64,000 nucleotides of DNA. It comes from Carboxylicivirga sp. M1479 (GTDB lineage: Bacteria; Bacteroidota; Bacteroidia; Bacteroidales; Marinilabiliaceae). The position numbers and the translations under genes are program-made. Each line of letters starts with the position of its first letter. Positions within the stretch are counted from its first letter, which is position 1. Below, in pieces: positions 710 to 11,877 of the stretch. The stretch lies in the NCBI RefSeq assembly GCF_007097485.1, contig NZ_VKDE01000009.1:1-64000 (forward strand), written 5' to 3'. The notes beneath the pieces are model-generated. The model had not been told where the DNA came from. It saw only the letters and a list, made by a program, of their open reading frames with translations, and searched no databases.

Positions 710-1441
710 TTAAACTGTCTTCTCTACTAACTGATAAAACTGTTCCTCAAGGCGCCCTATTCTCTTTGATTCTGTTTCATCAACAAGATTACCAATAGAC
801 CTTACTATAGGATAATAATAATCAATATCGTCAATACTTACTCTTAATAAATCATAATCAACTTGCAATACTAAAATAGTGTGATCTGCTAATACTTTTA
901 GCTTACTAATAAAAATAGCATCACCTATTTTCAAAACGTAGTATTGATCTCGCGAAATATTATTTTGTTGAGTTTCAATTATTACAATGTCATTTTGTTT
1001 TATACTATTAGGTAATGCCCTATAGTCACGAAGCATCACATTAACAGCAACTAGTGTCATTGAAGTCTCATGCAAAGGTATTTTAATTATATCAAGCTCT
1101 TTGTTGTCATCTATCACACCTCTCTCAACTTCATGAATAGATGAATAAAAAGGTATATTTTTAATGTGGCATACAAACTTTTTAGTACTCTTAAAAGTCG
1201 GTTCATTTCCTACATCAAAATGATAAAGTTCGTTTACTGTTAGCTCCTTATTGATTAACTCATCGATTGTAATGCTAAAATATTTAGCAATCCTATTAAT
1301 TAAATCGATCTTCGGTTCTGCCCTTCCCTCTTCGTACGAACCAATGCTAGCCCGTGATAAGTCAAATACTTCAGCAAACTCAGTCTGACTTATCTTCTGT
1401 ATTGAACGAATCTTTCTAATATTACTTCCAAAATAACTCAT
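710..1441 (-). CDS. XRE-family transcriptional regulator with S24/LexA-like C-terminal region
   Basis: This is a 243-residue DNA-binding protein. Residues about 6-64 form a lambda-Cro/C1 helix-turn-helix (SQTEFAEVFDLSRASIGSYE, then the EPKIDLINRIAKYF helix). The C-terminal half ends in a pattern like the S24/LexA beta-fold (NDIVII, then QYYVLKIGDAIFISKLKV). However, the usual G-[D/E]-S-M serine position reads NVMLRDYRALP, so autocleavage looks lost and the domain may only dimerise or sense. It is transcribed away from the PspA-flotillin cassette starting at 1635. The shared 190-bp gap carries a sigma-type promoter and a repeated motif, so it probably controls that cassette. That role is an inference; the HTH call is secure. 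Confidence 0.85.
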   Translation of the reverse strand: MSYFGSNIRKIRSIQKISQTEFAEVFDLSRASIGSYEEGRAEPKIDLINRIAKYFSITIDELINKELTVNELYHFDVGNEPTFKSTKKFVCHIKNIPFYSSIHEVERGVIDDNKELDIIKIPLHETSMTLVAVNVMLRDYRALPNSIKQNDIVIIETQQNNISRDQYYVLKIGDAIFISKLKVLADHTILVLQVDYDLLRVSIDDIDYYYPIVRSIGNLVDETESKRIGRLEEQFYQLVEKTV

Positions 1442-1453
1442 GGTAAATGCTAT

Positions 1454-1490
1454 TTATATTTGCATTGCTAAATTATATCGTTATATTTGC
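1454..1490 (+). promoter_or_regulatory. Bacteroidota-type promoter with overlapping operator-like repeats
   Basis: TTTG at 1459-1462 is followed after 19 bp by TATATTTG at 1482-1489, matching the Bacteroidota primary-sigma consensus TTTG-N19-21-TAnnTTTG. The 10-mer TTATATTTGC occurs twice, at 1454-1463 and 1481-1490, and the flanks GCATTGCTAAA and TTTGCTAATGC form an imperfect inverted pair. The site points toward the cassette at 1635 and lies just upstream of the divergent XRE gene, so it is a plausible operator for that regulator. Binding is an inference. Confidence 0.6.
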
Positions 1491-1634
1491 TAATGCAACT
1501 ATCAAAGAAATAGAAATATAGATTAAAATGCTAATTTCCTTACCTCTTTCTTATGAATATAAATAAACTATTTATGCTTAATGAGACAATATTTTTTTTA
1601 AATTCAAAACCCGAAAAATGATTAAACCACTCTA

Positions 1635-2036
1635 ATGATGGAAAACAATTTTAAAAAAGTAAAGAATTACCTTTTAGAACTAAATTGCGAGATAGTTAAT
1701 GAGAATGAGACCGAAAGCATTCTTGTTGTAACCAAGCCTGACGAAGGAATAGTCAATTTAGTTTTAGGCTGTGTTGATCCACTCCTAATAATGGAGCAAT
1801 TTATATTTGAAATTAATGGAGACAACTTGAATGTGTTCAAACAATTACTTATGAAGAATCGAGATATTGTTCACGGTGCATTTGTACTAGACGAAACAGG
1901 TCGCAAGGTCATCTTCAGAGACACACTTCAAATTGAAAACCTTGACTTAAATGAATTGGAAGGTTCGATTAATTCATTAAGCCTATTACTTAGTGAATAT
2001 GCGAATGATATCATTAAATTTTCGTCAATAAAGTAA
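1635..2036 (+). CDS. Small Tir-chaperone/YbjN-like protein, first gene of the PspA-flotillin cassette
   Basis: This 133-residue soluble protein has no signal peptide or membrane segment. Alternating short strands and helices, with a closing acidic helix (LNELEGSINSLSLLLSEYAN, about 105-124), resemble the type III secretion chaperone/YbjN fold. Small proteins of this class, including E. coli YjfI (DUF2170), often sit directly before PspA-like genes. It ends four bases before the pspA start, so the two are probably translated together. The start could be Met1 or Met2 (adjacent ATG codons at 1635 and 1638). A role as an adaptor or chaperone for PspA is an inference from position; the fold assignment is by pattern only. 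Confidence 0.7.
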   Translation: MMENNFKKVKNYLLELNCEIVNENETESILVVTKPDEGIVNLVLGCVDPLLIMEQFIFEINGDNLNVFKQLLMKNRDIVHGAFVLDETGRKVIFRDTLQIENLDLNELEGSINSLSLLLSEYANDIIKFSSIK

Positions 2037-2040
2037 CGCC

Positions 2041-2754
2041 ATGAACATATTTAGCAGATTATTCAGAATAGGAACAGCCGAGGCACATTCGGCAGTAGAC
2101 AAATTAGAAGATCCAATTAAAATGACTGAACAAGGCATTCGTGATCTCAAAAGCAATTTAGACGATAGCTTAAAAGCTTTAGCAGAAGTAAAAGCACTAA
2201 CGATTCGTGCAAAAAACGATTACGAATCAAGCCGTACACATGCAGGCGAATATGAGAAAAAAGCCATATTACTTCTCAAAAAAGCAGAAAAAGGCGAATT
2301 ATCCGCAGAAGATGCCGACCGCCTAGCAACAGAAGCTTTAGCTAAAAAAGAAGAGTGCTTAGTTCATGCTACTCAGAAACAAAGTGAAGTAGCCCGTTTT
2401 GAACAGAATCTAGGACAATTGGATAGTAATATTAAAAAACTTCGCTCACAAATTAGTGCATATGAAAATGAGCTAAAAACCTTAACCGCTCGTGTTAAAG
2501 TTAGCAAAGCAACCAAGAGTATTAACAAACAAATGGCACAGATCGATTCAAGTAGCACCATTAACATGCTTGAAAAGATGAAAGAAAAGGTAGACCAAGA
2601 AGAGGCACTATCTGAAGCTTATGGAGAAATAGCCAATGAGTCAAAAACATTGGATGATGAAATAGACTCTGCACTTGGAGGAAATAAAGCCGAAGCATCC
2701 GAATCCTTAGCTGAGTTAAAAGCAAAGTTAGGATTAGATAAAGAAGAAGAGTAA
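2041..2754 (+). CDS. pspA: PspA/IM30 (ESCRT-III-like) membrane-stress protein
   Basis: This 237-residue protein is almost entirely helical and coiled coil. It opens with the typical MNIFSRLFRIGTAEAHSAVD amphipathic segment and continues with the EDPIKMTEQGIRDLKSNLDD motif, as in PspA, Vipp1 and E. coli YjfJ. Members bind stressed inner membranes, polymerise and limit proton leakage. The length is normal for the family. It follows the small chaperone-like gene by four bases. A stem-loop with a T-run lies immediately downstream, so part of the transcription probably stops here. No pspBC or pspF genes are nearby; control presumably comes from the divergent XRE protein. The family call is secure. 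Confidence 0.93.
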   Translation: MNIFSRLFRIGTAEAHSAVDKLEDPIKMTEQGIRDLKSNLDDSLKALAEVKALTIRAKNDYESSRTHAGEYEKKAILLLKKAEKGELSAEDADRLATEALAKKEECLVHATQKQSEVARFEQNLGQLDSNIKKLRSQISAYENELKTLTARVKVSKATKSINKQMAQIDSSSTINMLEKMKEKVDQEEALSEAYGEIANESKTLDDEIDSALGGNKAEASESLAELKAKLGLDKEEE

Positions 2755-2760
2755 ATGCAA

Positions 2761-2798
2761 AGAGGTTAGTACCTGATGGAATTAACCTCTATTTTTTT
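2761..2798 (+). terminator. Rho-independent (partial) terminator after pspA
   Basis: AGAGGTTA at 2761-2768 pairs with TAACCTCT at 2783-2790 and is followed by ATTTTTTTG. It separates pspA from the yqiJ-like gene. Because the downstream genes face the same way with no obvious new promoter, it may act as an attenuator giving more pspA transcript than distal transcript. Confidence 0.65.
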
Positions 2799-2861
2799 GA
2801 ACAGCTACAATATTGGTTTCGCAAACGGGAACCCTTAATCACTAATCCAAATCCCTCTGTC

Positions 2862-3548
2862 ATGAAGGAATTATTTGAAGCTGCCTTTTCGGGAGTAAAT
2901 GTTATCCCAACGGTACTATTAGTTTTAGTATTATTCTATTGGCTATTGGTTATCATTGGTGCAATGGATATTGACACTGTTGACTTTGATATCGATGCCG
3001 ATATAGATGTGGATGTTGACATAGACATTGATACAGATGTAGATACTGATTTAGATGGGGCTAATTCTGTAGAAGAAGGCATTGGCTCAATAGCTTTTCT
3101 TAATTCTGTTTTAGTCTTTTTTAATCTTGGTAAAATACCATTTATGGTATGGCTAAGCTTCCTGATTATTCCCATGTGGATTATTTCCATTTTATTTAAT
3201 CACTTTATGGGCAATAGTTTGTTTTTAATAGCTTTAGTCGCACTGATACCAAATTTGATTGTCAGTCTTATAGTTTCAAAAGTTCTTACAACCCCAATTG
3301 CAGCAGTTTTTGCCAGACTCAAAAAGAATAATGACGACCAGTTTAAATACACCGGTAAAATTTGTACCGTTTTAATGCGTACCACCAATAATAGGTTCGG
3401 TCAGGCAGAGATAAGCAGAAACGGAAACATTTATCGTGTAAATATCCTGACCCATGGTGAGGCCATATTGGAGAAAGGTCAAACAGCCTTAATAATCGAA
3501 TACCTAGCTAATAAGAAGTGTTATTTAGTCGAACCTTATAAAATTTAA
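2862..3548 (+). CDS. YqiJ-like inner-membrane OB-fold protein with Asp-rich repeat
   Basis: This 228-residue membrane protein has a hydrophobic helix at about 14-35, then an unusual strictly alternating acidic stretch (D-I/V/T/A-D..., residues 36-66). Hydrophobic segments follow at about 79-115 and 119-142, and a C-terminal soluble beta domain (about 161-228) looks like the NfeD/YqiJ OB-fold. In E. coli the yqiJ-yqiK pair couples such a protein to a flotillin; the same order is seen here, with the flotillin starting 5 bases after this stop. It probably anchors or organises the flotillin. The Asp-rich run is not something I associate with YqiJ and may bind divalent cations. Confidence 0.78.
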   Translation: MKELFEAAFSGVNVIPTVLLVLVLFYWLLVIIGAMDIDTVDFDIDADIDVDVDIDIDTDVDTDLDGANSVEEGIGSIAFLNSVLVFFNLGKIPFMVWLSFLIIPMWIISILFNHFMGNSLFLIALVALIPNLIVSLIVSKVLTTPIAAVFARLKKNNDDQFKYTGKICTVLMRTTNNRFGQAEISRNGNIYRVNILTHGEAILEKGQTALIIEYLANKKCYLVEPYKI

Positions 3549-3553
3549 AATAT

Positions 3554-5695
3554 ATGGAAATGATTCAATCTCTTGGCATAAGTGCCGTTATTTTTCTTGT
3601 AATTGTTATTATCGGTATTATATCTTTAATAATAAAAACCTATCGTAAAGCCACACAAGGTCAGGCAATGGTACGGACAGGAGCCGGTGGTGCAAAAGTA
3701 ACTTTTACTGGAATGTTTGTAATCCCAATACTCCACAAGATGGAATCAATGGACATTACCTTAAAAACAGTGGTTATTGAGCGCATGGCCAAAGATGGCT
3801 TGATCTGTAAAGACAATATGCGTGCTGACATCAAAGTGGCCTTCTTCGTTCGAGTTAACAAAACAAGCGAGGATGTTATTCAAGTTGCCCAATCAATTGG
3901 TTGTAATCGGGCTTCTGACCAGAAAGCTTTGGTAGAACTCTTTGATGCCAAATTCTCAGAAGCACTTAAAACTGTTGGTAAACAATTTGAATTTGTTGAA
4001 CTATATAATTCACGTGAGAAATTTAAACACGAGATTCTCAACATTATCGGTACTGATTTAAACGGATATATACTGGATGACTGTGCCATTGACTTTCTAG
4101 AACAAACACCGCTTGAATCGTTATCTGAAAACAACATCCTAGATTCTGAAGGCATTAAGAAAATTGTAGAATTAACCGCTAAACAAAAGGTGTTATCAAA
4201 CCAAATCGAACGTAATAAACAAAAAACCATAACTAAACAGGATGTTGAAGCGCGTGAAACAGTTTTGGAGCTAGAACGTCAGTTAGCGGAAACCGAAGAA
4301 AACCAGAAAAGGGAAGTCGCTAACATAAAAGACCGTCAGGAAGCTGAAATCAAAAAAGTTGCAGAGGAACAACGCTTAGTAGCAGAAAAAGCTCGCATAA
4401 TTGCGGAGGAAGAAATTGCCGTTGCTGAAAAGAATAAAGAACGCCAGGTTGTTATTGCCGATAAAAATCGTGAACGCGTTGAGGCAGTTGAAACTGAAGC
4501 TGTAGAACAAGAACGTGAATTGAAGCATACCGAGCGTGAACGCATTGTTACTCTAGCACAGATCGAAAAACAAAAAGAAGTTGAAATTCAAAAGAAACAA
4601 ATACAGGAAGTAATTCGTGAACGCGTAGAGGTTGAAAAAGCAACAGTTGCTGAACAAGAGAAAATTAAGGATACGCAAGATTTTGCAACTGCTGATCGTG
4701 CCAAGAAAGTGGCTATCACTAAAGCAGAAATGGATGCAGAAGAAGCTTTTGTACGTGAAATTAAATCGGCTGAAGCTGCCAAGAATGCGGCAGAACACAA
4801 TGCAAAGACAAGGTTGATTGACGCTGAGGCTGAATTTGAAGCAGCAGGTAAAAGGGCTGAAGCAAGCAAAATAATGGCTGAAGCTAAAGCTGCTGAGGAA
4901 GCTGCTATCGGTGTTGCCGAAGCGCAGGTTATTGAGGCCAAAGCCGACGCCATGGAGAAACAAGGCCTAAATGAGGCCAAAGTAATGGAGATGAAATCAG
5001 AAGCCGAAGCTAAAGGAAAAAAGGCCAAAGCAGCTGCCGAGGCCGAATCTATACAAAAGGTTGGAGAATCTGAAGCAGAGGTTATCAAAGCAAAAGCTGA
5101 AGCTCATGCTGAAAAAGGACAAGCTGAAAACAAAGTTCTGGATGAACGTAATGCAGTTGAGGCGAAAGGTATTGAAGAAAAAGGTATGGCAATGAAGAAG
5201 CTGGATGCTGTTGGCAGAGACCATGAAGAGTTTAAGCTGAAGTTAGACATGCAAAAAGAGCTTGAACTTGCGCGTATCAATATCCAAAAAGGAATTGCAG
5301 ATGCACAATCACAAGTGATTGCTGAAGCATTAAAAGCTGCTAATATAGATATCGTTGGTGGAGAAACAATGTTCTTCGATAAGATAATTGGTTCCATTAC
5401 GCAAGGCAAACAAGTTGATAAATTAGTTAAGAACAGTGACATTATTAGCGATATCAAAAACCACTTCTTTGATAGTTCTGATGGCAAAAGCTTTAAAGGC
5501 CAATTCGCCAGCTTTATCGACCAATTTGGCATCTCATCTGAAGATGTTCGCAATTTAAGTATCAGTGCCTTGATAGGCCGAATGATGCAAGAAAACACCG
5601 ATGAAAAGACTGGTAGCATGCTTAGTAGCTTAAACGACATTGCTAAAAGTTTAGGCGTATCAAATAGCACTGCTAAAGCCCTGGGCATCGTATAA
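3554..5695 (+). CDS. Flotillin/YqiK-like SPFH-domain protein
   Basis: This 713-residue protein has one N-terminal membrane helix (about 9-29) and an SPFH/band-7 domain (about 35-200, including the TLKTVVIERMAKDG and AIDFLEQTPLESL regions). A very long Ala/Glu/Lys coiled coil follows (about 205-560, many AEA repeats), then a C-terminal helical region. Flotillins form ring-like scaffolds on membranes and define microdomains. The length fits the larger YqiK class rather than short HflK/stomatin forms. It is tightly coupled to the YqiJ-like gene upstream (5-bp gap). Several long open frames on the reverse strand here result from the repetitive codon pattern and are not genes. Confidence 0.9.
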   Translation: MEMIQSLGISAVIFLVIVIIGIISLIIKTYRKATQGQAMVRTGAGGAKVTFTGMFVIPILHKMESMDITLKTVVIERMAKDGLICKDNMRADIKVAFFVRVNKTSEDVIQVAQSIGCNRASDQKALVELFDAKFSEALKTVGKQFEFVELYNSREKFKHEILNIIGTDLNGYILDDCAIDFLEQTPLESLSENNILDSEGIKKIVELTAKQKVLSNQIERNKQKTITKQDVEARETVLELERQLAETEENQKREVANIKDRQEAEIKKVAEEQRLVAEKARIIAEEEIAVAEKNKERQVVIADKNRERVEAVETEAVEQERELKHTERERIVTLAQIEKQKEVEIQKKQIQEVIRERVEVEKATVAEQEKIKDTQDFATADRAKKVAITKAEMDAEEAFVREIKSAEAAKNAAEHNAKTRLIDAEAEFEAAGKRAEASKIMAEAKAAEEAAIGVAEAQVIEAKADAMEKQGLNEAKVMEMKSEAEAKGKKAKAAAEAESIQKVGESEAEVIKAKAEAHAEKGQAENKVLDERNAVEAKGIEEKGMAMKKLDAVGRDHEEFKLKLDMQKELELARINIQKGIADAQSQVIAEALKAANIDIVGGETMFFDKIIGSITQGKQVDKLVKNSDIISDIKNHFFDSSDGKSFKGQFASFIDQFGISSEDVRNLSISALIGRMMQENTDEKTGSMLSSLNDIAKSLGVSNSTAKALGIV

Positions 5696-5703
5696 CAAAT
5701 TTC

Positions 5704-5738
5704 ATTAACGCTTCCTGAACTATTCAGGAAGTGTTAAT
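5704..5738 (+). other. Strong stem-loop between flotillin and ATPase genes
   Basis: ATTAACGCTTCCTGAA (5704-5719) and TTCAGGAAGTGTTAAT (5723-5738) form a 16-bp hairpin with one G-T pair and a 3-base loop. No T-run follows, so it looks more like an mRNA-stabilising or processing structure than a full terminator. It sits in the 125-bp gap that divides the cassette. Confidence 0.6.
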
Positions 5739-5820
5739 CCTACTATTCTGCAATAGTACATTTTCATATTGCTCAAATTGTCATGCTTTTTTTTCATCAC
5801 ATTCCCCTAACAATTGATTT

Positions 5821-8800
5821 ATGTCTGATAATCAAAACACTACAGATAAGAACATACAGCTTGAGGAAGGCACTTACGAAATCATCAAAAACAGATTACG
5901 ACAAAGTGGCGGAGAGCTAAGTCAAAGGTTAGAACAACTCAATACATCTCGAAAAGATGTGTTCGGATCCATTGAAAGCACTCTCGTTGCAACTGATCGA
6001 ATCGGAACTGAAAACAACTGTACCCCTGCCGACATGGTGGCCCTGGGCAACATCCTACTCTTTGGATACAATGTAACCATGGGCTTGAAAACAAAAACTT
6101 CATTGGATGATGTATTCAGTGTTTATGACTTTAACGAACACACTTTCAATCAAAACAACATCAACATCATTAATGACTCACAGTTTATTAATGATTTCGA
6201 CAACTTGTATGAGTATTACAAAGAGACTCAGTTTAAAAAATTTGCAACCATCGGCCCTCATCTGTTTATGGTGTTTCAAACGGGTAAAAGCAATGACGAC
6301 ATAAAAGCATTTAAATGGCTTATCAAAAGCGATGAACTCGAATACAAAGGCAATCGTAGCTCACACGAATTTGTATTCCCCGATCAGCATGAATTTAAGT
6401 GGGAAAAAGTTACACGAGAACAATATGTTTATGGTGAGCATCCGCATGTTTCAATCAGAGATAGGGTTTTTGTTGAAGCTGTAGGCGGAGACATCACCTT
6501 CAAAATTGAAGACAATACAGATTCTGGTCTTGGAATATATGCCGAAGAGGTTGAAGTTAAAGATCAAACACTAGATGACGCAGAGATTCATTACGCTATT
6601 ATTGGCAACCTTATCATCATTCGTATCTTGCCATACAAAGAAAATGAGTTCCGTTATTTTGTCTATAATTCAAAAATTCAGAAAGTTCAACGTATCGACG
6701 CCCTCGAAGATTCATGTGTATTATTACCTGATGACCAAGGCCTTATTTTTGCCAATGGTTATTATTTACAAAACGGACAATTCAAACTATTCGACAGAGA
6801 TATTGAAGGCTTAATGTATGAACGCAAGTTAGCTTCTATCAATGGAGAAGACTTTCTTTATACTTTTTACAATCAGGAAATTGGCGCCTATGTGCTTCTA
6901 ATATATAATTTGATTAATCAGCGCGTTGAAACACCAATTATTTGTAACGGCTATTCATTGTTTGACAATGGTGAGTTATGCTACTTCAAAAAACCCGATG
7001 AGCCATCACGTCATCATATAATACAAGTCTGGCAAACACCTTTTATGACAACTGAAAACCAAGCTACTCCAACAAACAATTCTCGTTTATATAAAATCGG
7101 GAATAAGGATGTGGTTAAAGCCATGGCTGAATGTAACGAAGTCATCTTATTAGTTAATAAAGATGAAGCTTATACTGATGTATATGGCGACTTGGTAAAA
7201 CGTTGCACCGATGTAATTGACAGTTATTACTGGTTATCCGAAAAAGATGCATTTGACATTAAAACACCTCTTAATGAGATTAAAGAATCTGCATTCTCGG
7301 CGATTACCGAATACGAGAAAGTCAGAAATATTCGCAAAAATACAAAAGAGCAAATTAAGGAGGTAAGTGATAAAGTCAAGGAAATATTTAACCACATTAC
7401 CAAGCAACAAATTGGGCACATAGATCGCTATGTGGAATTATTGGCCGCACTCCGAACCGCTAGAGGCGAAGTTATAAGCCTGAAAGAACTACGCTATGTT
7501 GACATGCTTTTTATTGACGAATTAGAGAATGATGTGGAAGAAAAAACAGTTCGATTATCGCAGGACTGTGTTACTTTTCTATTACGAGAGGAAGCTCTCT
7601 ATTCATACGAAGAAAAAGTTAATAATATTCGAGAGGGAGTTTCAAAGATCACTAAGGTTAGCGAGGCCGATGACCTTTCTGACGAGATAATCAAACTTGC
7701 CGGTCAACTCGAAATGCTTATTGACATCGTTAGTAGCCTAAAAATTGAGGATGCCACACAAACAACGCAAATAATCAATAATATTTCAGGTGTATATTCA
7801 CAGTTTAATCTCATTAAAACAGATCTTAAAAAGCAACGAAAAAGCCTCAGAGCCGTTGAAGCCAAAGCTGAATTTAACTCACAATTAATGCTAGTTGAAC
7901 AAGGCATGCTCAATTACATCGACCTTTGTGATTCACCGGGAAAAGCCGACGAATACCTCTCTAAACTAATGGTACAGCTCGAAGAGTTAGAAGGTAAATT
8001 CTCTGATTTTGACGAATTTATGCCAAGCATTGCTGAACGAAGAGAGCAGGTTTACAATGCTTTCGAGACTAAAAAGCTGAGCTTAACTGAAGAACGCAAT
8101 CGAAAAACAACAGCTTTACAATCATCTGCAGAACGTATTCTAAAAGCAATTCGTAGTCGTATTTCAAAATTCAAAGAAACCTCGGAGGTTAATGGTTACT
8201 TTGCATCTGATTTAATGATTGAAAAAGTGCGCGATGTCATAACTCAGCTGAAAGAGTTAGATGACAATGTGAAAGCTGATGATTTAGAAAGTAAGTTAAA
8301 GTCATTAAAAGAGGAAACAATTCGTCAGATTAAAGATCGGACAGAACTTTTCGAGGGTGACGCTAACATCATTAAGTTTGGAAATCATAAGTTTTCGGTA
8401 AATACCCAACCATTAGAACTTTCAATGGTAAACAAAGATGGTAGCATGTTTTACCATTTATCGGGCACCAACTTTTTTGAGGAAGTAAAAGATACCGAGT
8501 TTATGGCAACAAAAGATATCTGGAGTCAATTGTTACCATCCGAAAACAAATCGGTTTATAGGGCTGAATATATGGCCTATATTATATTCAATGCATCTAA
8601 GAATAAAACAGATGGACATCTGTCTCTACCAGAACTAGCAGGCTTAAGCGACAAAAAATTAGTAGAACATGTTCAAAGAATAATGTCATTGCGCTTTAGC
8701 GAAGGTTACTCCAAAGGAGTGCATGATTTTGATACAGCCATTATCCTGAAACAACTTTTGAATGTGTACAGCAATGCAGGTCTGCTACGTTATCCTGCCG

Positions 8801-10719
8801 ATGCTAGGGCAATGGCTGAGTATTTTTGGAAAGTATATTGCAGTGACGAGCTGCGCTCTGATCTAAACAACAATCTGAAAGGTGCTGGACTGATAATTAA
8901 GGTATTCCCAGACACACATCAGTTTGATTACCTGCTGGATACCTTGCTTAAGATGCTTCAGGAATTTCAAGTTGCCGAAAAACTATTCAATGAAGAGAGT
9001 ATTGAGGATGCAACCCATTTCCTTTTCCATCAGATGCTGGAGGCCGATGAGTTTATCATCTCCAAGGCAGCTATCAACCACCTGGATGGATTTGTGGCCT
9101 ACCTGAGAAAAAACAGGGCAACAAAAACTTACGAAGAGTCATTAAAACCTTTATTAAAAGATTATGCTAATGCCTATCGCTTAATTACAAAATGGGTGAA
9201 GGCCTATTTAGACATGGAAGGCAAATCAGCCGAACACCTGAATGAGGTAAGTATGACGCTTTTGCTTGATTCAAAATTACGTAAGAAGTTGATTGATCAA
9301 CCTGTATCTTCTGAGTTAACAGGACTTAAAGGCTCACACCAGTTGATTATTGAAAATAAATACAACTTCCATTTTAACGCCTTTATGGCTAAGATGAATG
9401 GTTTTACACGTTCCACTGTCCCAAAGTTTGAGAAGTATAATTTACTAAAAAAGCAACTGACAGATTCATTTACTGACGAATTGCGTTTGAATGAGTTTAA
9501 ACCGCGTGTACTGTCTTCATTTGTCAGAAACAGATTAATTGATAAGGTCTATTTCCCATTAATTGGTAATAACCTGGCCAAGCAAATTGGTGCAGAGGGT
9601 GCCGGCAAACGAACCGACCTCATGGGTATGCTACTATTAATTTCTCCTCCGGGTTATGGTAAAACAACCTTAATGGAATACCTGGCAAGTCGCCTTGGTA
9701 TCATCTTTATGAAGATTAACGGGCCTTCAATCGGACATACTATTACATCACTGGATCCTTCTGAAGCTGAAAATGCTGCAGCCAGAGAGGAACTTGAAAA
9801 GCTAAACCTGTCTTTTGAAATGGGCGACAATGTGATGATTTACCTGGATGATATTCAACACTGCAACCCTGAATTTTTGCAGAAATTCATTTCTCTTTGT
9901 GACGCCCAGAGGAAGGTGGAAGGTGTTTACAAAGGTAAAAGTAAAACCTACGACTTCAGAGGCAAAAAAGTATGTGTGGTGATGGCAGGTAACCCATATA
10001 CCGAGAGTGGTGATAAATTCAAAATTCCGGATATGTTAGCCAACCGTGCCGACATCTATAACATTGGTGACATTATCGGAGGATCTGCTGAAGAATTCAA
10101 GTTGAGCTATATTGAAAACTCCCTCACTTCCAATCCTGTATTGAACAAACTGGCTTCCAAAAGCCAGAAAGACTTATACACTCTTATTTCCATTGCCCAA
10201 ACAGGCAGTAAAGACGGACTGGAGTTCGAAGCGTCACATACACCAGAGGAAGTCAACGAATATGTAACAGTACTCAAAAAGCTATTGACCGCACGTGATG
10301 TTATTCTAAATGTAAACCTGGAATACATTTCTTCTGCTGCGCAAGCCGAAGAATACAGATCTGAGCCACCATTTAAACTACAGGGTTCTTACAGAGATAT
10401 GAATAAGATATCGGAAAAGATCCTGCCAATAATGAATGACCAGGAACTGGAAACATTGCTCTTATCTCACTATCGCAATGAAGCACAGACACTGACGAGC
10501 GGTGCCGAAGCGAACATTCTTAAGTTTAAAGAGATATACGGCGTAATAACAACCGAAGAGATAGAGCGCTGGACTGAACTGAAAGAAACCTTTGTTAGAA
10601 ATAACAAATTAAAAGGAATGGGTAGTGATAAGCAGGCCGCTAATGTATTGGTTCAGATGGAAGAAATTGCCAAAGGCGTATTCGGCATTAAAGATGAAAT
10701 AGGAAAAAACAAGAACTAA
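5821..10719 (+). CDS. Giant coiled-coil AAA ATPase (DUF3686 'DNA repair ATPase' type)
   Basis: This 1632-residue cytoplasmic protein has a long N-terminal beta-rich region (about 100-440) and a coiled-coil middle (about 490-840) rich in Glu and Lys. Its C-terminal AAA ATPase core has a Walker A SPPGYGKTT (about 1275-1283), a Walker B VMIYLDDIQH (about 1338-1347), and a sensor-like VVMAGNPYTESGD. This matches the family annotated as DNA repair ATPase with an N-terminal DUF3686 domain; that DNA-repair label is by annotation habit, not proof. In this cassette it may remodel PspA or flotillin assemblies, much as Vps4 does for ESCRT-III, which is an inference. The TerB-like gene follows after 18 bp. 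Confidence 0.82.
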   Translation: MSDNQNTTDKNIQLEEGTYEIIKNRLRQSGGELSQRLEQLNTSRKDVFGSIESTLVATDRIGTENNCTPADMVALGNILLFGYNVTMGLKTKTSLDDVFSVYDFNEHTFNQNNINIINDSQFINDFDNLYEYYKETQFKKFATIGPHLFMVFQTGKSNDDIKAFKWLIKSDELEYKGNRSSHEFVFPDQHEFKWEKVTREQYVYGEHPHVSIRDRVFVEAVGGDITFKIEDNTDSGLGIYAEEVEVKDQTLDDAEIHYAIIGNLIIIRILPYKENEFRYFVYNSKIQKVQRIDALEDSCVLLPDDQGLIFANGYYLQNGQFKLFDRDIEGLMYERKLASINGEDFLYTFYNQEIGAYVLLIYNLINQRVETPIICNGYSLFDNGELCYFKKPDEPSRHHIIQVWQTPFMTTENQATPTNNSRLYKIGNKDVVKAMAECNEVILLVNKDEAYTDVYGDLVKRCTDVIDSYYWLSEKDAFDIKTPLNEIKESAFSAITEYEKVRNIRKNTKEQIKEVSDKVKEIFNHITKQQIGHIDRYVELLAALRTARGEVISLKELRYVDMLFIDELENDVEEKTVRLSQDCVTFLLREEALYSYEEKVNNIREGVSKITKVSEADDLSDEIIKLAGQLEMLIDIVSSLKIEDATQTTQIINNISGVYSQFNLIKTDLKKQRKSLRAVEAKAEFNSQLMLVEQGMLNYIDLCDSPGKADEYLSKLMVQLEELEGKFSDFDEFMPSIAERREQVYNAFETKKLSLTEERNRKTTALQSSAERILKAIRSRISKFKETSEVNGYFASDLMIEKVRDVITQLKELDDNVKADDLESKLKSLKEETIRQIKDRTELFEGDANIIKFGNHKFSVNTQPLELSMVNKDGSMFYHLSGTNFFEEVKDTEFMATKDIWSQLLPSENKSVYRAEYMAYIIFNASKNKTDGHLSLPELAGLSDKKLVEHVQRIMSLRFSEGYSKGVHDFDTAIILKQLLNVYSNAGLLRYPADARAMAEYFWKVYCSDELRSDLNNNLKGAGLIIKVFPDTHQFDYLLDTLLKMLQEFQVAEKLFNEESIEDATHFLFHQMLEADEFIISKAAINHLDGFVAYLRKNRATKTYEESLKPLLKDYANAYRLITKWVKAYLDMEGKSAEHLNEVSMTLLLDSKLRKKLIDQPVSSELTGLKGSHQLIIENKYNFHFNAFMAKMNGFTRSTVPKFEKYNLLKKQLTDSFTDELRLNEFKPRVLSSFVRNRLIDKVYFPLIGNNLAKQIGAEGAGKRTDLMGMLLLISPPGYGKTTLMEYLASRLGIIFMKINGPSIGHTITSLDPSEAENAAAREELEKLNLSFEMGDNVMIYLDDIQHCNPEFLQKFISLCDAQRKVEGVYKGKSKTYDFRGKKVCVVMAGNPYTESGDKFKIPDMLANRADIYNIGDIIGGSAEEFKLSYIENSLTSNPVLNKLASKSQKDLYTLISIAQTGSKDGLEFEASHTPEEVNEYVTVLKKLLTARDVILNVNLEYISSAAQAEEYRSEPPFKLQGSYRDMNKISEKILPIMNDQELETLLLSHYRNEAQTLTSGAEANILKFKEIYGVITTEEIERWTELKETFVRNNKLKGMGSDKQAANVLVQMEEIAKGVFGIKDEIGKNKN

Positions 10720-10737
10720 CGATATTAAAAGATAGCA

Positions 10738-11151
10738 ATGGACTTTAGAAATTACTTTGACTCAGCTGAAGCACAACTGGCATTATTTATTAAAATGGCC
10801 AAAGCCGACGGTGAAATTATCCAAGCAGAAATGATGTTTTTAAAACTGCTGGCACACAAACTTAATATTAATAGCAGTGATTTTGATACTATACTGGATA
10901 ACTATGAAAAATATAGGTATTTGCCTCCTGCCAATGAAAAAGAGCGATTTATGACACTTTATATTCTTATCCAGATGATGAAAGTGGATTTGTCGATGAA
11001 GGCGGAAGAAATAGAGTTTTGCCTTGAAATCGGCAAGCGACTTCATATCGATGAAGATAAGATGAAAAACATCATTGAGCTATCAAAACAACAGGAGAAA
11101 AAAGTGGTTGGCTATGAGGAGATTAAAAAGGAATTAAAACCTATTCTTTAA
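10738..11151 (+). CDS. TerB-like helical protein, last gene of the stress cassette
   Basis: This all-helical protein of 137 residues has the TerB-type opening AEAQLALFIKMAKADGEIIQ, with the ADGEI acidic turn, and a second similar half (MKVDLSMKAEEIEFCLEIGK). TerB-family proteins bind metal ions and sit at the membrane face of Ter stress complexes. No terC, terD or terZ genes are nearby, so this is not a classic tellurite operon. It lies 18 bp after the giant ATPase and ends the rightward run at a perfect inverted repeat. Family call likely; the function in this setting is unknown. Confidence 0.75.
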   Translation: MDFRNYFDSAEAQLALFIKMAKADGEIIQAEMMFLKLLAHKLNINSSDFDTILDNYEKYRYLPPANEKERFMTLYILIQMMKVDLSMKAEEIEFCLEIGKRLHIDEDKMKNIIELSKQQEKKVVGYEEIKKELKPIL

Positions 11152-11205: not shown

Positions 11206-11252
11206 AACTTCTATAGCATACCTCTGAATTGAAATAGTATGCTATAGAAGTT
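11206..11252. terminator. Perfect 16-bp inverted repeat between convergent genes
   Basis: AACTTCTATAGCATAC (11206-11221) pairs exactly with GTATGCTATAGAAGTT (11237-11252) around a 15-base loop. It lies between the stop codons of the TerB-like gene and the convergent TonB-like remnant, so it most simply serves as a two-way terminator. Confidence 0.7.
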
Positions 11253-11259
11253 ATTTTGA

Positions 11260-11877
11260 TCACGTAAGACTAAATCTAACTGGTATTGTATAGCTCACTT
11301 TCACCGGTTTGCCTCGCTGCTTGCCTGGCTTCCATTTCGGCATTGCTTTTATAATACGAGTAGCTTCAGCTTCTAATTCGGATGAGACTCCACGTACTAT
11401 TTTAATATCAGTTATACTTCCATCAACATCGATGGCAAAACTGATGTAAACAATTCCACTAACACCGTTCTCAACAGCTATAGGTGGATAAACAAGGATA
11501 TTGGCAATAAATTCAGTTAAGGCTTCAGCACCTCCCGGATATTCGGGCATTTCCTCAACAATTAAAAGCAGGCCATCTCCCTCTTCTTCCTCCTCAACTT
11601 CCATATATACAATCTCAAAGTCTCCCTCACTATCTTCGATATGTAATTCTTCACACAATTCAACATCACAATCTACAATTGATAGAATATCACTTGATGT
11701 TGGAGGAGGTGGTGGTGATTGAGGATTCCGATTTTGCGCTCTAATAGAGTTAATGATTGGATCAATCGCTACAAAAGGTGTAAATTCAGTCAGCAAATTA
11801 TATTTCAATCCAAGAGCTGTTATTTCCTCTTTGAGCTCTGCATCAAGTAATATCTTAAAAAATAAAACACGATTCAA
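11260..11877 (-). pseudogene. 5'-truncated VIT/VWA protein remnant with TonB C-terminal domain
   Basis: The open frame gives 205 residues, but the first 40 contain EITALGLKYNLLTEFTPFVA, the segment that closes VIT/von Willebrand-A proteins in this phylum. After it come a proline run (about 54-60), an acidic linker and a TonB C-terminal domain (about 105-205: YPPIAVENGVSGIVYISF and MPKWKPGKQRGKPVKVSYTI). There is no ATG before this core; the only in-frame start is TTG at 11877, the frame runs upstream without a signal peptide, and a stop lies near 11940. The simplest reading is that the VIT and VWA part was deleted, leaving a C-terminal stump. It could also be a functional short TonB-like protein, but without a membrane anchor that is unlikely. 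Confidence 0.6.

What the first reader, a model, noticed from the sequence alone, without database searches (positions are those of the whole stretch)
1454..11151. XRE-controlled PspA-flotillin-AAA ATPase-TerB cassette as a candidate uncharacterised membrane-stress or defence system
Seen: six rightward genes with short gaps (Tir/YbjN-like, PspA, YqiJ-like, flotillin, 1632-aa AAA ATPase, TerB-like), divergent from an XRE/S24-like regulator. Known: PspA is ESCRT-III-like, flotillins scaffold membranes, TerB is membrane/metal-linked, and parts of this order are found in other phyla. Inference: the giant ATPase could remodel PspA/flotillin assemblies in a Vps4-like way, with the XRE protein as the switch. 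The ATPase is usually annotated as DNA repair without proof.
Basis: partly seen in the sequence, partly recalled or inferred. Interest (0 to 1): 0.75.

Follow-up and report, generated by a model that had tools for sequence, protein, structure and literature searches.

The report
XRE-switched PspA–flotillin–AAA+ membrane cassette
This is a real, conserved bacterial gene cassette that probably builds an ATP-driven membrane repair or protein-care platform around a flotillin scaffold; its core was already in print, but its dedicated on/off switch and the type of its motor protein were not found described.

Summary
In detail: a divergent XRE/S24-like gene faces CesT/Tir-PspA-YqiJ-flotillin-ATPase-TerB, closed by a terminator-like hairpin. 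The gene set is not new: Ravi et al. 2024 (PMC11237479) describe the CesT/Tir-PspA-flotillin-AAA+-YqiJ operon, and the P. aeruginosa bac operon, reported up during phage infection, is the nearest system with experiments.

Added here. (1) XRE belongs to the cassette: of 69 loci with at least 7 kb upstream, XRE, CesT and PspA are all present in 33, all absent in 35, PspA alone in 1; 15 CesT-PspA pairs without the ATPase lack it. (2) A conserved operator overlaps a Bacteroidota-type promoter; in seven genomes picked for having it, the near-exact site occurs once, at the cassette. (3) The steadiest ATPase partners are flotillin (66 of 69) and YqiJ (63 of 69), in ten named phyla, not PspA; 6 of 25 PspA-less loci lie in genomes with no PspA hit. 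(4) The motor's best structural alignments are MoxR-type (CbbQ, NorQ). (5) TerB is accessory (3 of 90). No defence island seen.

Best reading: a flotillin-NfeD scaffold with its own AAA+ motor, plus a PspA/CesT repair module, under a local repressor.

The parts
710..1441 (-). XRE-family regulator with a C-terminal S24-like domain; the residue at the catalytic Ser position reads as Asp here
   Evidence: HTH_3 1e-10, S24 under its cut-off; divergent homologue in 33 of 69 loci; 34 rows compared by eye
1459..1489 (+). Bacteroidota-type promoter TTTG-N19-TAnnTTTG reading into the operon
   Evidence: relaxed form of the pattern in 24 of 34 XRE loci against 1.2 in shuffles; strict form 13 of 34 against 0.3; consensus recalled
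1453..1505 (.). imperfect palindromic operator (arms 1453-1473 and 1485-1505); half-sites at 1466, 1486 and, outside it, 1529
   Evidence: inverted repeat, 76%; motif 49 seen against 4.3 expected over 34 loci; positions
1635..2036 (+). CesT/Tir-like chaperone (PF22550)
   Evidence: E 1.9e-55
2041..2754 (+). PspA, ESCRT-III-like; the only PspA hit in this genome
   Evidence: E 1e-43; one match in the genome
2862..3548 (+). YqiJ/NfeD-like membrane protein
   Evidence: 41% identity to a DUF1449 protein; YqiJ_N only E 0.19 in Pfam
3554..5695 (+). flotillin-like SPFH protein
   Evidence: 45% identity to a flotillin-family protein; SPFH orthologue on pQBR103
5704..5738 (+). stem-loop between flotillin and ATPase, possibly setting relative amounts
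   Evidence: z -5.7; a hairpin more stable than all 40 shuffles in 29 of 50 loci
5821..10719 (+). ATPase: WD40-like propeller (about 50-407), long coiled coils (about 481-844), helical middle, C-terminal AAA+ module
   Evidence: motor residues conserved
10738..11151 (+). TerB-like accessory gene
   Evidence: PF05099 1.6e-10; 3 of 90 loci
11206..11252 (.). terminator-like hairpin closing the unit
   Evidence: 16-bp perfect arms, -24.6 kcal/mol, z -6.5

Best explanation
An XRE-gated membrane maintenance machine. Shown by sequence: one divergent regulator, a conserved operator at the promoter, an operon-like run closed by a hairpin, and an ATPase with a conserved AAA+ site. Inferred: in unstressed cells the XRE protein sits on the operator and blocks the promoter. 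A membrane or protein-folding signal, sensed through its S24-like domain without self-cleavage, releases it. Flotillin with YqiJ/NfeD then forms a membrane scaffold or clamp that holds damaged membrane proteins. The ATPase, docked through its propeller and coiled coils, is the scaffold's dedicated motor: its MoxR-like AAA+ ring remodels clients or the scaffold itself. In Bacteroidota the CesT-PspA pair is added: CesT handles PspA, and the scaffold recruits PspA to reseal the bilayer. The hairpin after flotillin keeps the motor scarce relative to the scaffold.
Against: No physical interaction was tested; conserved order shows association, not contact. MoxR-type motors typically work with a VWA protein (PMC13036017 abstract) and none was found in the operon. 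The Z lead over dynein (14.8) and ClpA (13.5) is small, and Foldseek's own list is headed by RuvB with spastin at rank 5. The operator motif was chosen after looking at the same regions, related loci were not thinned, and it is absent from 10 of 34, five of them the Hymenobacter group. One genome, G335, has nine further sites at 2-3 mismatches against none in its control. The hairpin test fails in 21 of 50 loci. Deleting the P. aeruginosa flotillin paFlo3 lowers biofilm only about 20% (PMC13086221 passage).
Confidence: 0.5

Rival explanations
1. Vps4-like: the ATPase disassembles and recycles PspA (ESCRT-III-like) polymers, flotillin only placing them.
For: PspA-CesT adjoins the ATPase cassette in 33 of 69 loci and, with another CesT type (DUF2170), on pQBR103, so the pairing recurs. 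Spastin, a classical AAA, is rank 5 in Foldseek's list and PF00004 is the best Pfam AAA hit. Ravi et al. suggest ATP-dependent membrane remodelling for PspA with AAA+ partners.
Against: 35 of 69 ATPase loci have no PspA; of 25 such genomes 6 have no PspA hit at all, though 14 have one elsewhere. By eye the PspA C-terminal tail is the same in pairs without ATPase. VIA-align favours MoxR-type AAA+. Pfam reports no MIT domain.
Confidence: 0.2
2. Co-regulated but physically separate membrane-stress proteins sharing one switch.
For: CesT-PspA pairs occur without the rest and YqiJ-flotillin-ATPase without PspA.
Against: Fixed order and module structure in dozens of loci.
Confidence: 0.15
3. Anti-phage defence system.
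For: Patchy distribution (10 of 395; 14 of 60 relatives), copies on plasmids; PA3728-PA3732 up in phage-infected P. aeruginosa.
Against: No PADLOC hit for CesT, YqiJ, flotillin or ATPase; hits of XRE, PspA and TerB are HTH-only or weak. Of 138 flanking proteins, 9 PADLOC models had one member each at 1e-15, the best a candidate model PDC-S48 at 2.4e-42 (no control set was run). No homologue in 50,697 phage records. Induction of a psp-type system by phage can be plain membrane stress.
Confidence: 0.1
4. DNA repair ATPase, as annotated.
For: Database label; Walker A similarity to RuvB, RuvB first in Foldseek.
Against: Sequence similarity to solved structures covers only about 33-67 residues around Walker A; steady linkage to membrane scaffold genes.
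Confidence: 0.03

Closest known systems
CesT/Tir-PspA-band-7/flotillin-AAA+-YqiJ operon of Ravi et al. 2024 (PMC11237479; example ANH61663.1)
   Same: Same five genes; [quoted passage not shown] otherwise passages).
   Different: The words XRE, S24 and TerB do not occur in its main text; section 19 gives no operator, MoxR assignment or hairpin. Supplements were not read.
Pseudomonas aeruginosa bac operon bacABCDEF (PMC10948618, PMC2587700, PMC13086221; passages)
   Same: [quoted passage not shown]
   Different: Proposed sigma-54 promoter; no XRE in the passages seen; DUF2170 in place of PF22550; bacF not identified here. That bacE is DUF3686 rests on annotation wording, not on a sequence test.
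FloA-NfeD holdase of Staphylococcus aureus (PMC11222466; abstract and headings)
   Same: Flotillin plus NfeD partner.
   Different: ATP-independent; no AAA+ motor in the abstract.
YdjGHI-PspA of Bacillus subtilis (PMC8581546; abstract and headings)
   Same: An SPFH protein brings PspA to the membrane.
   Different: No motor in the abstract; other membrane partners.
MoxR-type AAA+ (CbbQ, NorQ)
   Same: Best VIA-align matches of the motor.
   Different: Solved chains are about 235-270 residues and NorQ acts with a VWA protein; here the motor is fused to a propeller and coiled coils.

Membership tests
Ravi et al. CesT/Tir-PspA-flotillin-AAA+-YqiJ operon | CesT/Tir-PspA pair with flotillin, YqiJ and propeller/coiled-coil AAA+ | tested here: met
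   flotillin and YqiJ by homology
Ravi et al. CesT/Tir-PspA-flotillin-AAA+-YqiJ operon | flotillin identity by a curated model | tested here: inconclusive
   no Pfam hit for the window protein; the pQBR103 orthologue hits Band_7
Vps4-type ESCRT ATPase | N-terminal MIT domain | tested here: not met
   Pfam reports none at E 0.01; the N-terminal half models as a propeller and coiled coils
Vps4-type ESCRT ATPase | classical AAA clade motor | tested here: inconclusive
   PF00004 29.9 bits, AAA_5 26.3 bits; CbbQ/NorQ lead VIA-align, Vps4 not among the rows shown; spastin rank 5 in Foldseek
Vps4-type ESCRT ATPase | constant ESCRT-III (PspA) partner | tested here: not met
   35 of 69 loci have no PspA; 6 of 25 such genomes have no hit (several are drafts)
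MoxR AAA+ | MoxR-type AAA+ fold | tested here: inconclusive
   [not shown]
MoxR AAA+ | VWA-domain partner | tested here: not met
   no VWA hit in the cassette's seven proteins and the next gene
Canonical PspF-PspABC system | PspF, PspB, PspC next to pspA | tested here: not met
   none among the eight proteins scanned; rest of the genome not searched
bac operon of P. aeruginosa | CesT-like, PspA, NfeD, SPFH, ATPase order | tested here: inconclusive
   order agrees with the papers; no P. aeruginosa sequence was compared
S24/LexA self-cleaving repressor | catalytic Ser before the conserved Met | tested here: not met
   read by eye from the aligned rows: Asp in the window, Ser in 1 of 34 (L016), 6 gapped (the column counted by the script was not this one)
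Known anti-phage systems (PADLOC) | match to a system's effector genes | tested here: not met
   ATPase, flotillin, YqiJ and CesT have no hit at E 0.01

The most novel reading that the evidence does not exclude
The YqiJ/NfeD-flotillin-DUF3686 triad is an ATP-powered membrane-microdomain machine: a flotillin scaffold with its own propeller/coiled-coil MoxR-like motor, spread over ten or more phyla. Bacteroidota wired it to PspA and CesT under a dedicated XRE switch, making an inducible ESCRT-III-plus-flotillin repair organelle.
Probability: 0.35. Interest if true: 0.78.

Novelty: new variant of a known kind. Interest (0 to 1): 0.52.

Why it matters
In the papers seen here bacterial flotillins and PspA have no proven ATPase partner. 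A widespread three-gene unit that nearly always pairs flotillin and NfeD with one giant AAA+ protein gives a concrete candidate motor, and the PspA version asks directly whether a bacterial ESCRT-III relative works with an ATPase. The local operator makes the trigger testable with a reporter, and the 'DNA repair ATPase' label could be corrected in many genomes.

Tried and rejected
Vps4-type docking tail on PspA: by eye the C-terminal helix is the same in CesT-PspA pairs without the ATPase, so not specific. TerB as a detached C-terminal ATPase domain: no convincing match in the extensions, best E 0.21. ATPase C-terminal extension as marker of PspA absence: 52 of 69 loci without PspA upstream against 0 of 35 with it have at least 45 extra residues (104 of 108 rows, L037, L050, L082, L091 dropped; this 69 is not the 69), but one clade confounds it and pQBR103 has PspA plus about 107 extra residues. 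Sequence profiles of the ATPase against solved structures: none for the whole, only the Walker A region for the motor half. CesT, flotillin and YqiJ against solved structures: nothing. Defence island: not seen, without a control set. Vps4 is not among the VIA-align rows shown; that absence proves nothing. The window's own operator was not searched genome-wide. Paper searches: DUF3686, 0 papers; flotillin with MoxR, 1 paper, seen in the listing only. Statements that something is not in print rest on these and on the passages read.
Full report
OBSERVATION. The cassette is present as described (domains). It looks like one transcription unit: gaps of 4, 107, 5, 125 and 18 nt, a Bacteroidota-type promoter at 1459-1489 and a 16-bp perfect hairpin at 11206-11252 between TerB and the converging TonB_C gene. 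GC is 0.36-0.40 over 2-12 kb and 0.32 in the first 2 kb, within the window's range. The genome has one PspA hit, the one here. The flotillin and YqiJ names are by homology, since the window proteins have no significant Pfam match.

DISTRIBUTION. DUF3686 is in 10 of 395 phylum genomes, own included, 5 of 171 genera, in 14 of 60 close relatives, 8 of 14 in the own genus with own included, and in 105 of 317 genomes of another, unnamed class. The plasmid collection has 12 of 72,556 records, each covering at least 80% of the query, several of chromosome size; phages 0 of 50,697. So the family is wide and patchy.

CORE AND MODULE. In 90 loci (80, 9, and the window) home-made profiles found flotillin in 80, YqiJ in 71, PspA in 36, XRE in 35, CesT in 34 and TerB in 3; some contigs end inside the operon and near-identical loci were not removed. 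With at least 7 kb upstream (69 loci; the window falls short and is not counted): flotillin on the same strand in 66, YqiJ in 63; PspA, CesT and divergent XRE all present in 33, all absent in 35, PspA only in 1 (L028). Exceptions for the core: L027 and L036 lack both labels, L041, L078 and L083 lack YqiJ, L044 has both on the other strand. Seven named phyla are in that set; Pseudomonadota, Deinococcota and Actinomycetota come from the plasmid collection. In 20 of the 105 genomes, flotillin was labelled in 17, YqiJ in 16, and PspA, CesT and XRE in none. Eight plasmid-collection loci (of 12) all have YqiJ-flotillin-ATPase; Hymenobacter sp. DG25B has the full XRE cassette, and pQBR103 has YjfI-PspA-rhomboid-DUF2491-DUF350-DUF1190-glutathionylspermidine synthase-YqiJ-SPFH-ATPase in one run. 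On the ATPase tree (108 rows, quick method) Bacteroidota rows with one Chlorobi row form one clade (48 rows, SH-aLRT 98); the XRE-CesT-PspA set sits only there, and PspA alone also in L085 outside it; Bacteroides sp. 51 groups with Chryseolinea, Sphingobacterium and Empedobacter, which suggests transfer.

TWO-WAY CONTROL. Of 395 phylum genomes 50 have CesT_Tir_1, including all 10 DUF3686 genomes. The 15 other strong ones (E 6.3e-38 or better) were all fetched (stretches of 6.5-18 kb): each is a CesT-PspA pair, and none shows an XRE, flotillin or YqiJ label. The 25 weak ones were not examined. Of 25 genomes whose ATPase locus lacks PspA, 14 have a PspA hit over the cut-off elsewhere, 5 only a weaker one and 6 none; several are draft genomes.

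SWITCH. Over 34 XRE-CesT intergenic regions, with some flank, TTWGCWAA occurs 49 times in 24 loci, against 4.3 expected and at most 12 in 200 dinucleotide shuffles; the motif was picked from the same regions. A TTTG-N18-21-TAnnTTTR promoter is in 24 of 34 against 1.2 (maximum 4 in 100 shuffles), the strict TAnnTTTG form in 13 against 0.3 (maximum 3), and in 21 of the 24 the -33 box reads TTTGC, the start of a half-site. The promoter consensus is recalled. Seven genomes chosen because their locus shows the motif each hold exactly one site within one mismatch of TTTGCTAATTTTATTTGCAAA, and its coordinates fall inside the cassette locus (two checked, five by the contig ranges). Sites at 2-3 mismatches also occur: nine in G335 against 0 in its control, 0-3 in the other six, no more than their controls. 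The S24-like domain lacks the catalytic Ser in the window and in all but one of 34 rows, 6 being gapped there (by eye). I infer a repressor that responds without self-cleavage. Own-genus loci show the same operator-promoter arrangement by eye.

EXPRESSION. A stem-loop just after flotillin (5704-5738, z -5.7) has counterparts in 29 of 50 loci where none of 40 shuffles is as stable, against 3 of 13 PspA-YqiJ and 5 of 27 YqiJ-flotillin gaps. The four loci tested, all from the class, do not show it. I infer that it may keep the motor below the scaffold in amount.

KNOWN. Ravi et al. 2024 (PMC11237479; section 19 and passages read) already list the operon, without XRE or TerB. Popp et al. 2022 (PMC9239133, passages) note band-7 proteins beside pspA in Bacteroidota and other phyla, NfeD as a partner in Acidobacteriota, and HTH regulators in PspA operons, so a regulator as such is not a new idea. 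The P. [quoted passage not shown] PA3728 is listed as an ATPase in PMC8190622 (passage); deleting bacA raises the other five proteins 6.1 to 13.5 fold; PA3728-PA3732 are up in all phage-infected samples in PMC12041424 (passage). The pQBR103 YjfI protein matches the BacA model at 1.1e-63, below its cut-off. So the kind is known; the XRE-switched Bacteroidota form, the core/module split and the motor assignment are what I add.

VERDICT. Real, conserved, partly known. Most likely a flotillin-centred, ATP-driven membrane maintenance machine with a PspA module and a local repressor; Vps4-like action on PspA remains possible but is not the conserved theme; defence is unsupported.

Noticed in passing
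L221 1043-14247 (pQBR103): A ten-gene run on a Pseudomonas plasmid joins the DUF2170-PspA-polyamine operon type to the YqiJ-SPFH-ATPase type, two groups that Ravi et al. list apart.
   Followed up: partly
window 5704-5738 and 28 other of 50 loci: A stem-loop right after the flotillin gene, shared in position though the sequences printed differ.
   Followed up: yes
ATPase C-termini, e.g. L031, L036, L064, L213: Extensions of 45-290 aa in many ATPases outside Bacteroidota, one with ankyrin repeats (L031), one with weak TPR matches (L036), many with a similar-looking helical stretch.
   Followed up: partly
L085 (Phycisphaerae SG8_4): A PspA-like gene directly downstream of the ATPase, outside Bacteroidota.
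   Followed up: no
L229 and L231-L234, just downstream of the ATPase: Genes of about 210 aa follow the ATPase in own-genus loci; the one in L231 is a TonB_C protein. The window has TerB there and a TonB_C gene facing it at 11260-11877.
   Followed up: partly
L230, L236, L062, L087 downstream of the ATPase: The other loci seen with TerB in the same place; L236 has TerB but no PspA label.
   Followed up: no
G335: Nine further operator-like sites at 2-3 mismatches, most reading GCTAATnTTATTAGCAA; whether they are a wider regulon or a repeat was not examined.
   Followed up: no
NZ_OL790812.1, NZ_OL790811.1: Records of about 4 Mb labelled Proteus mirabilis plasmids that are probably chromosomes.
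   Followed up: no
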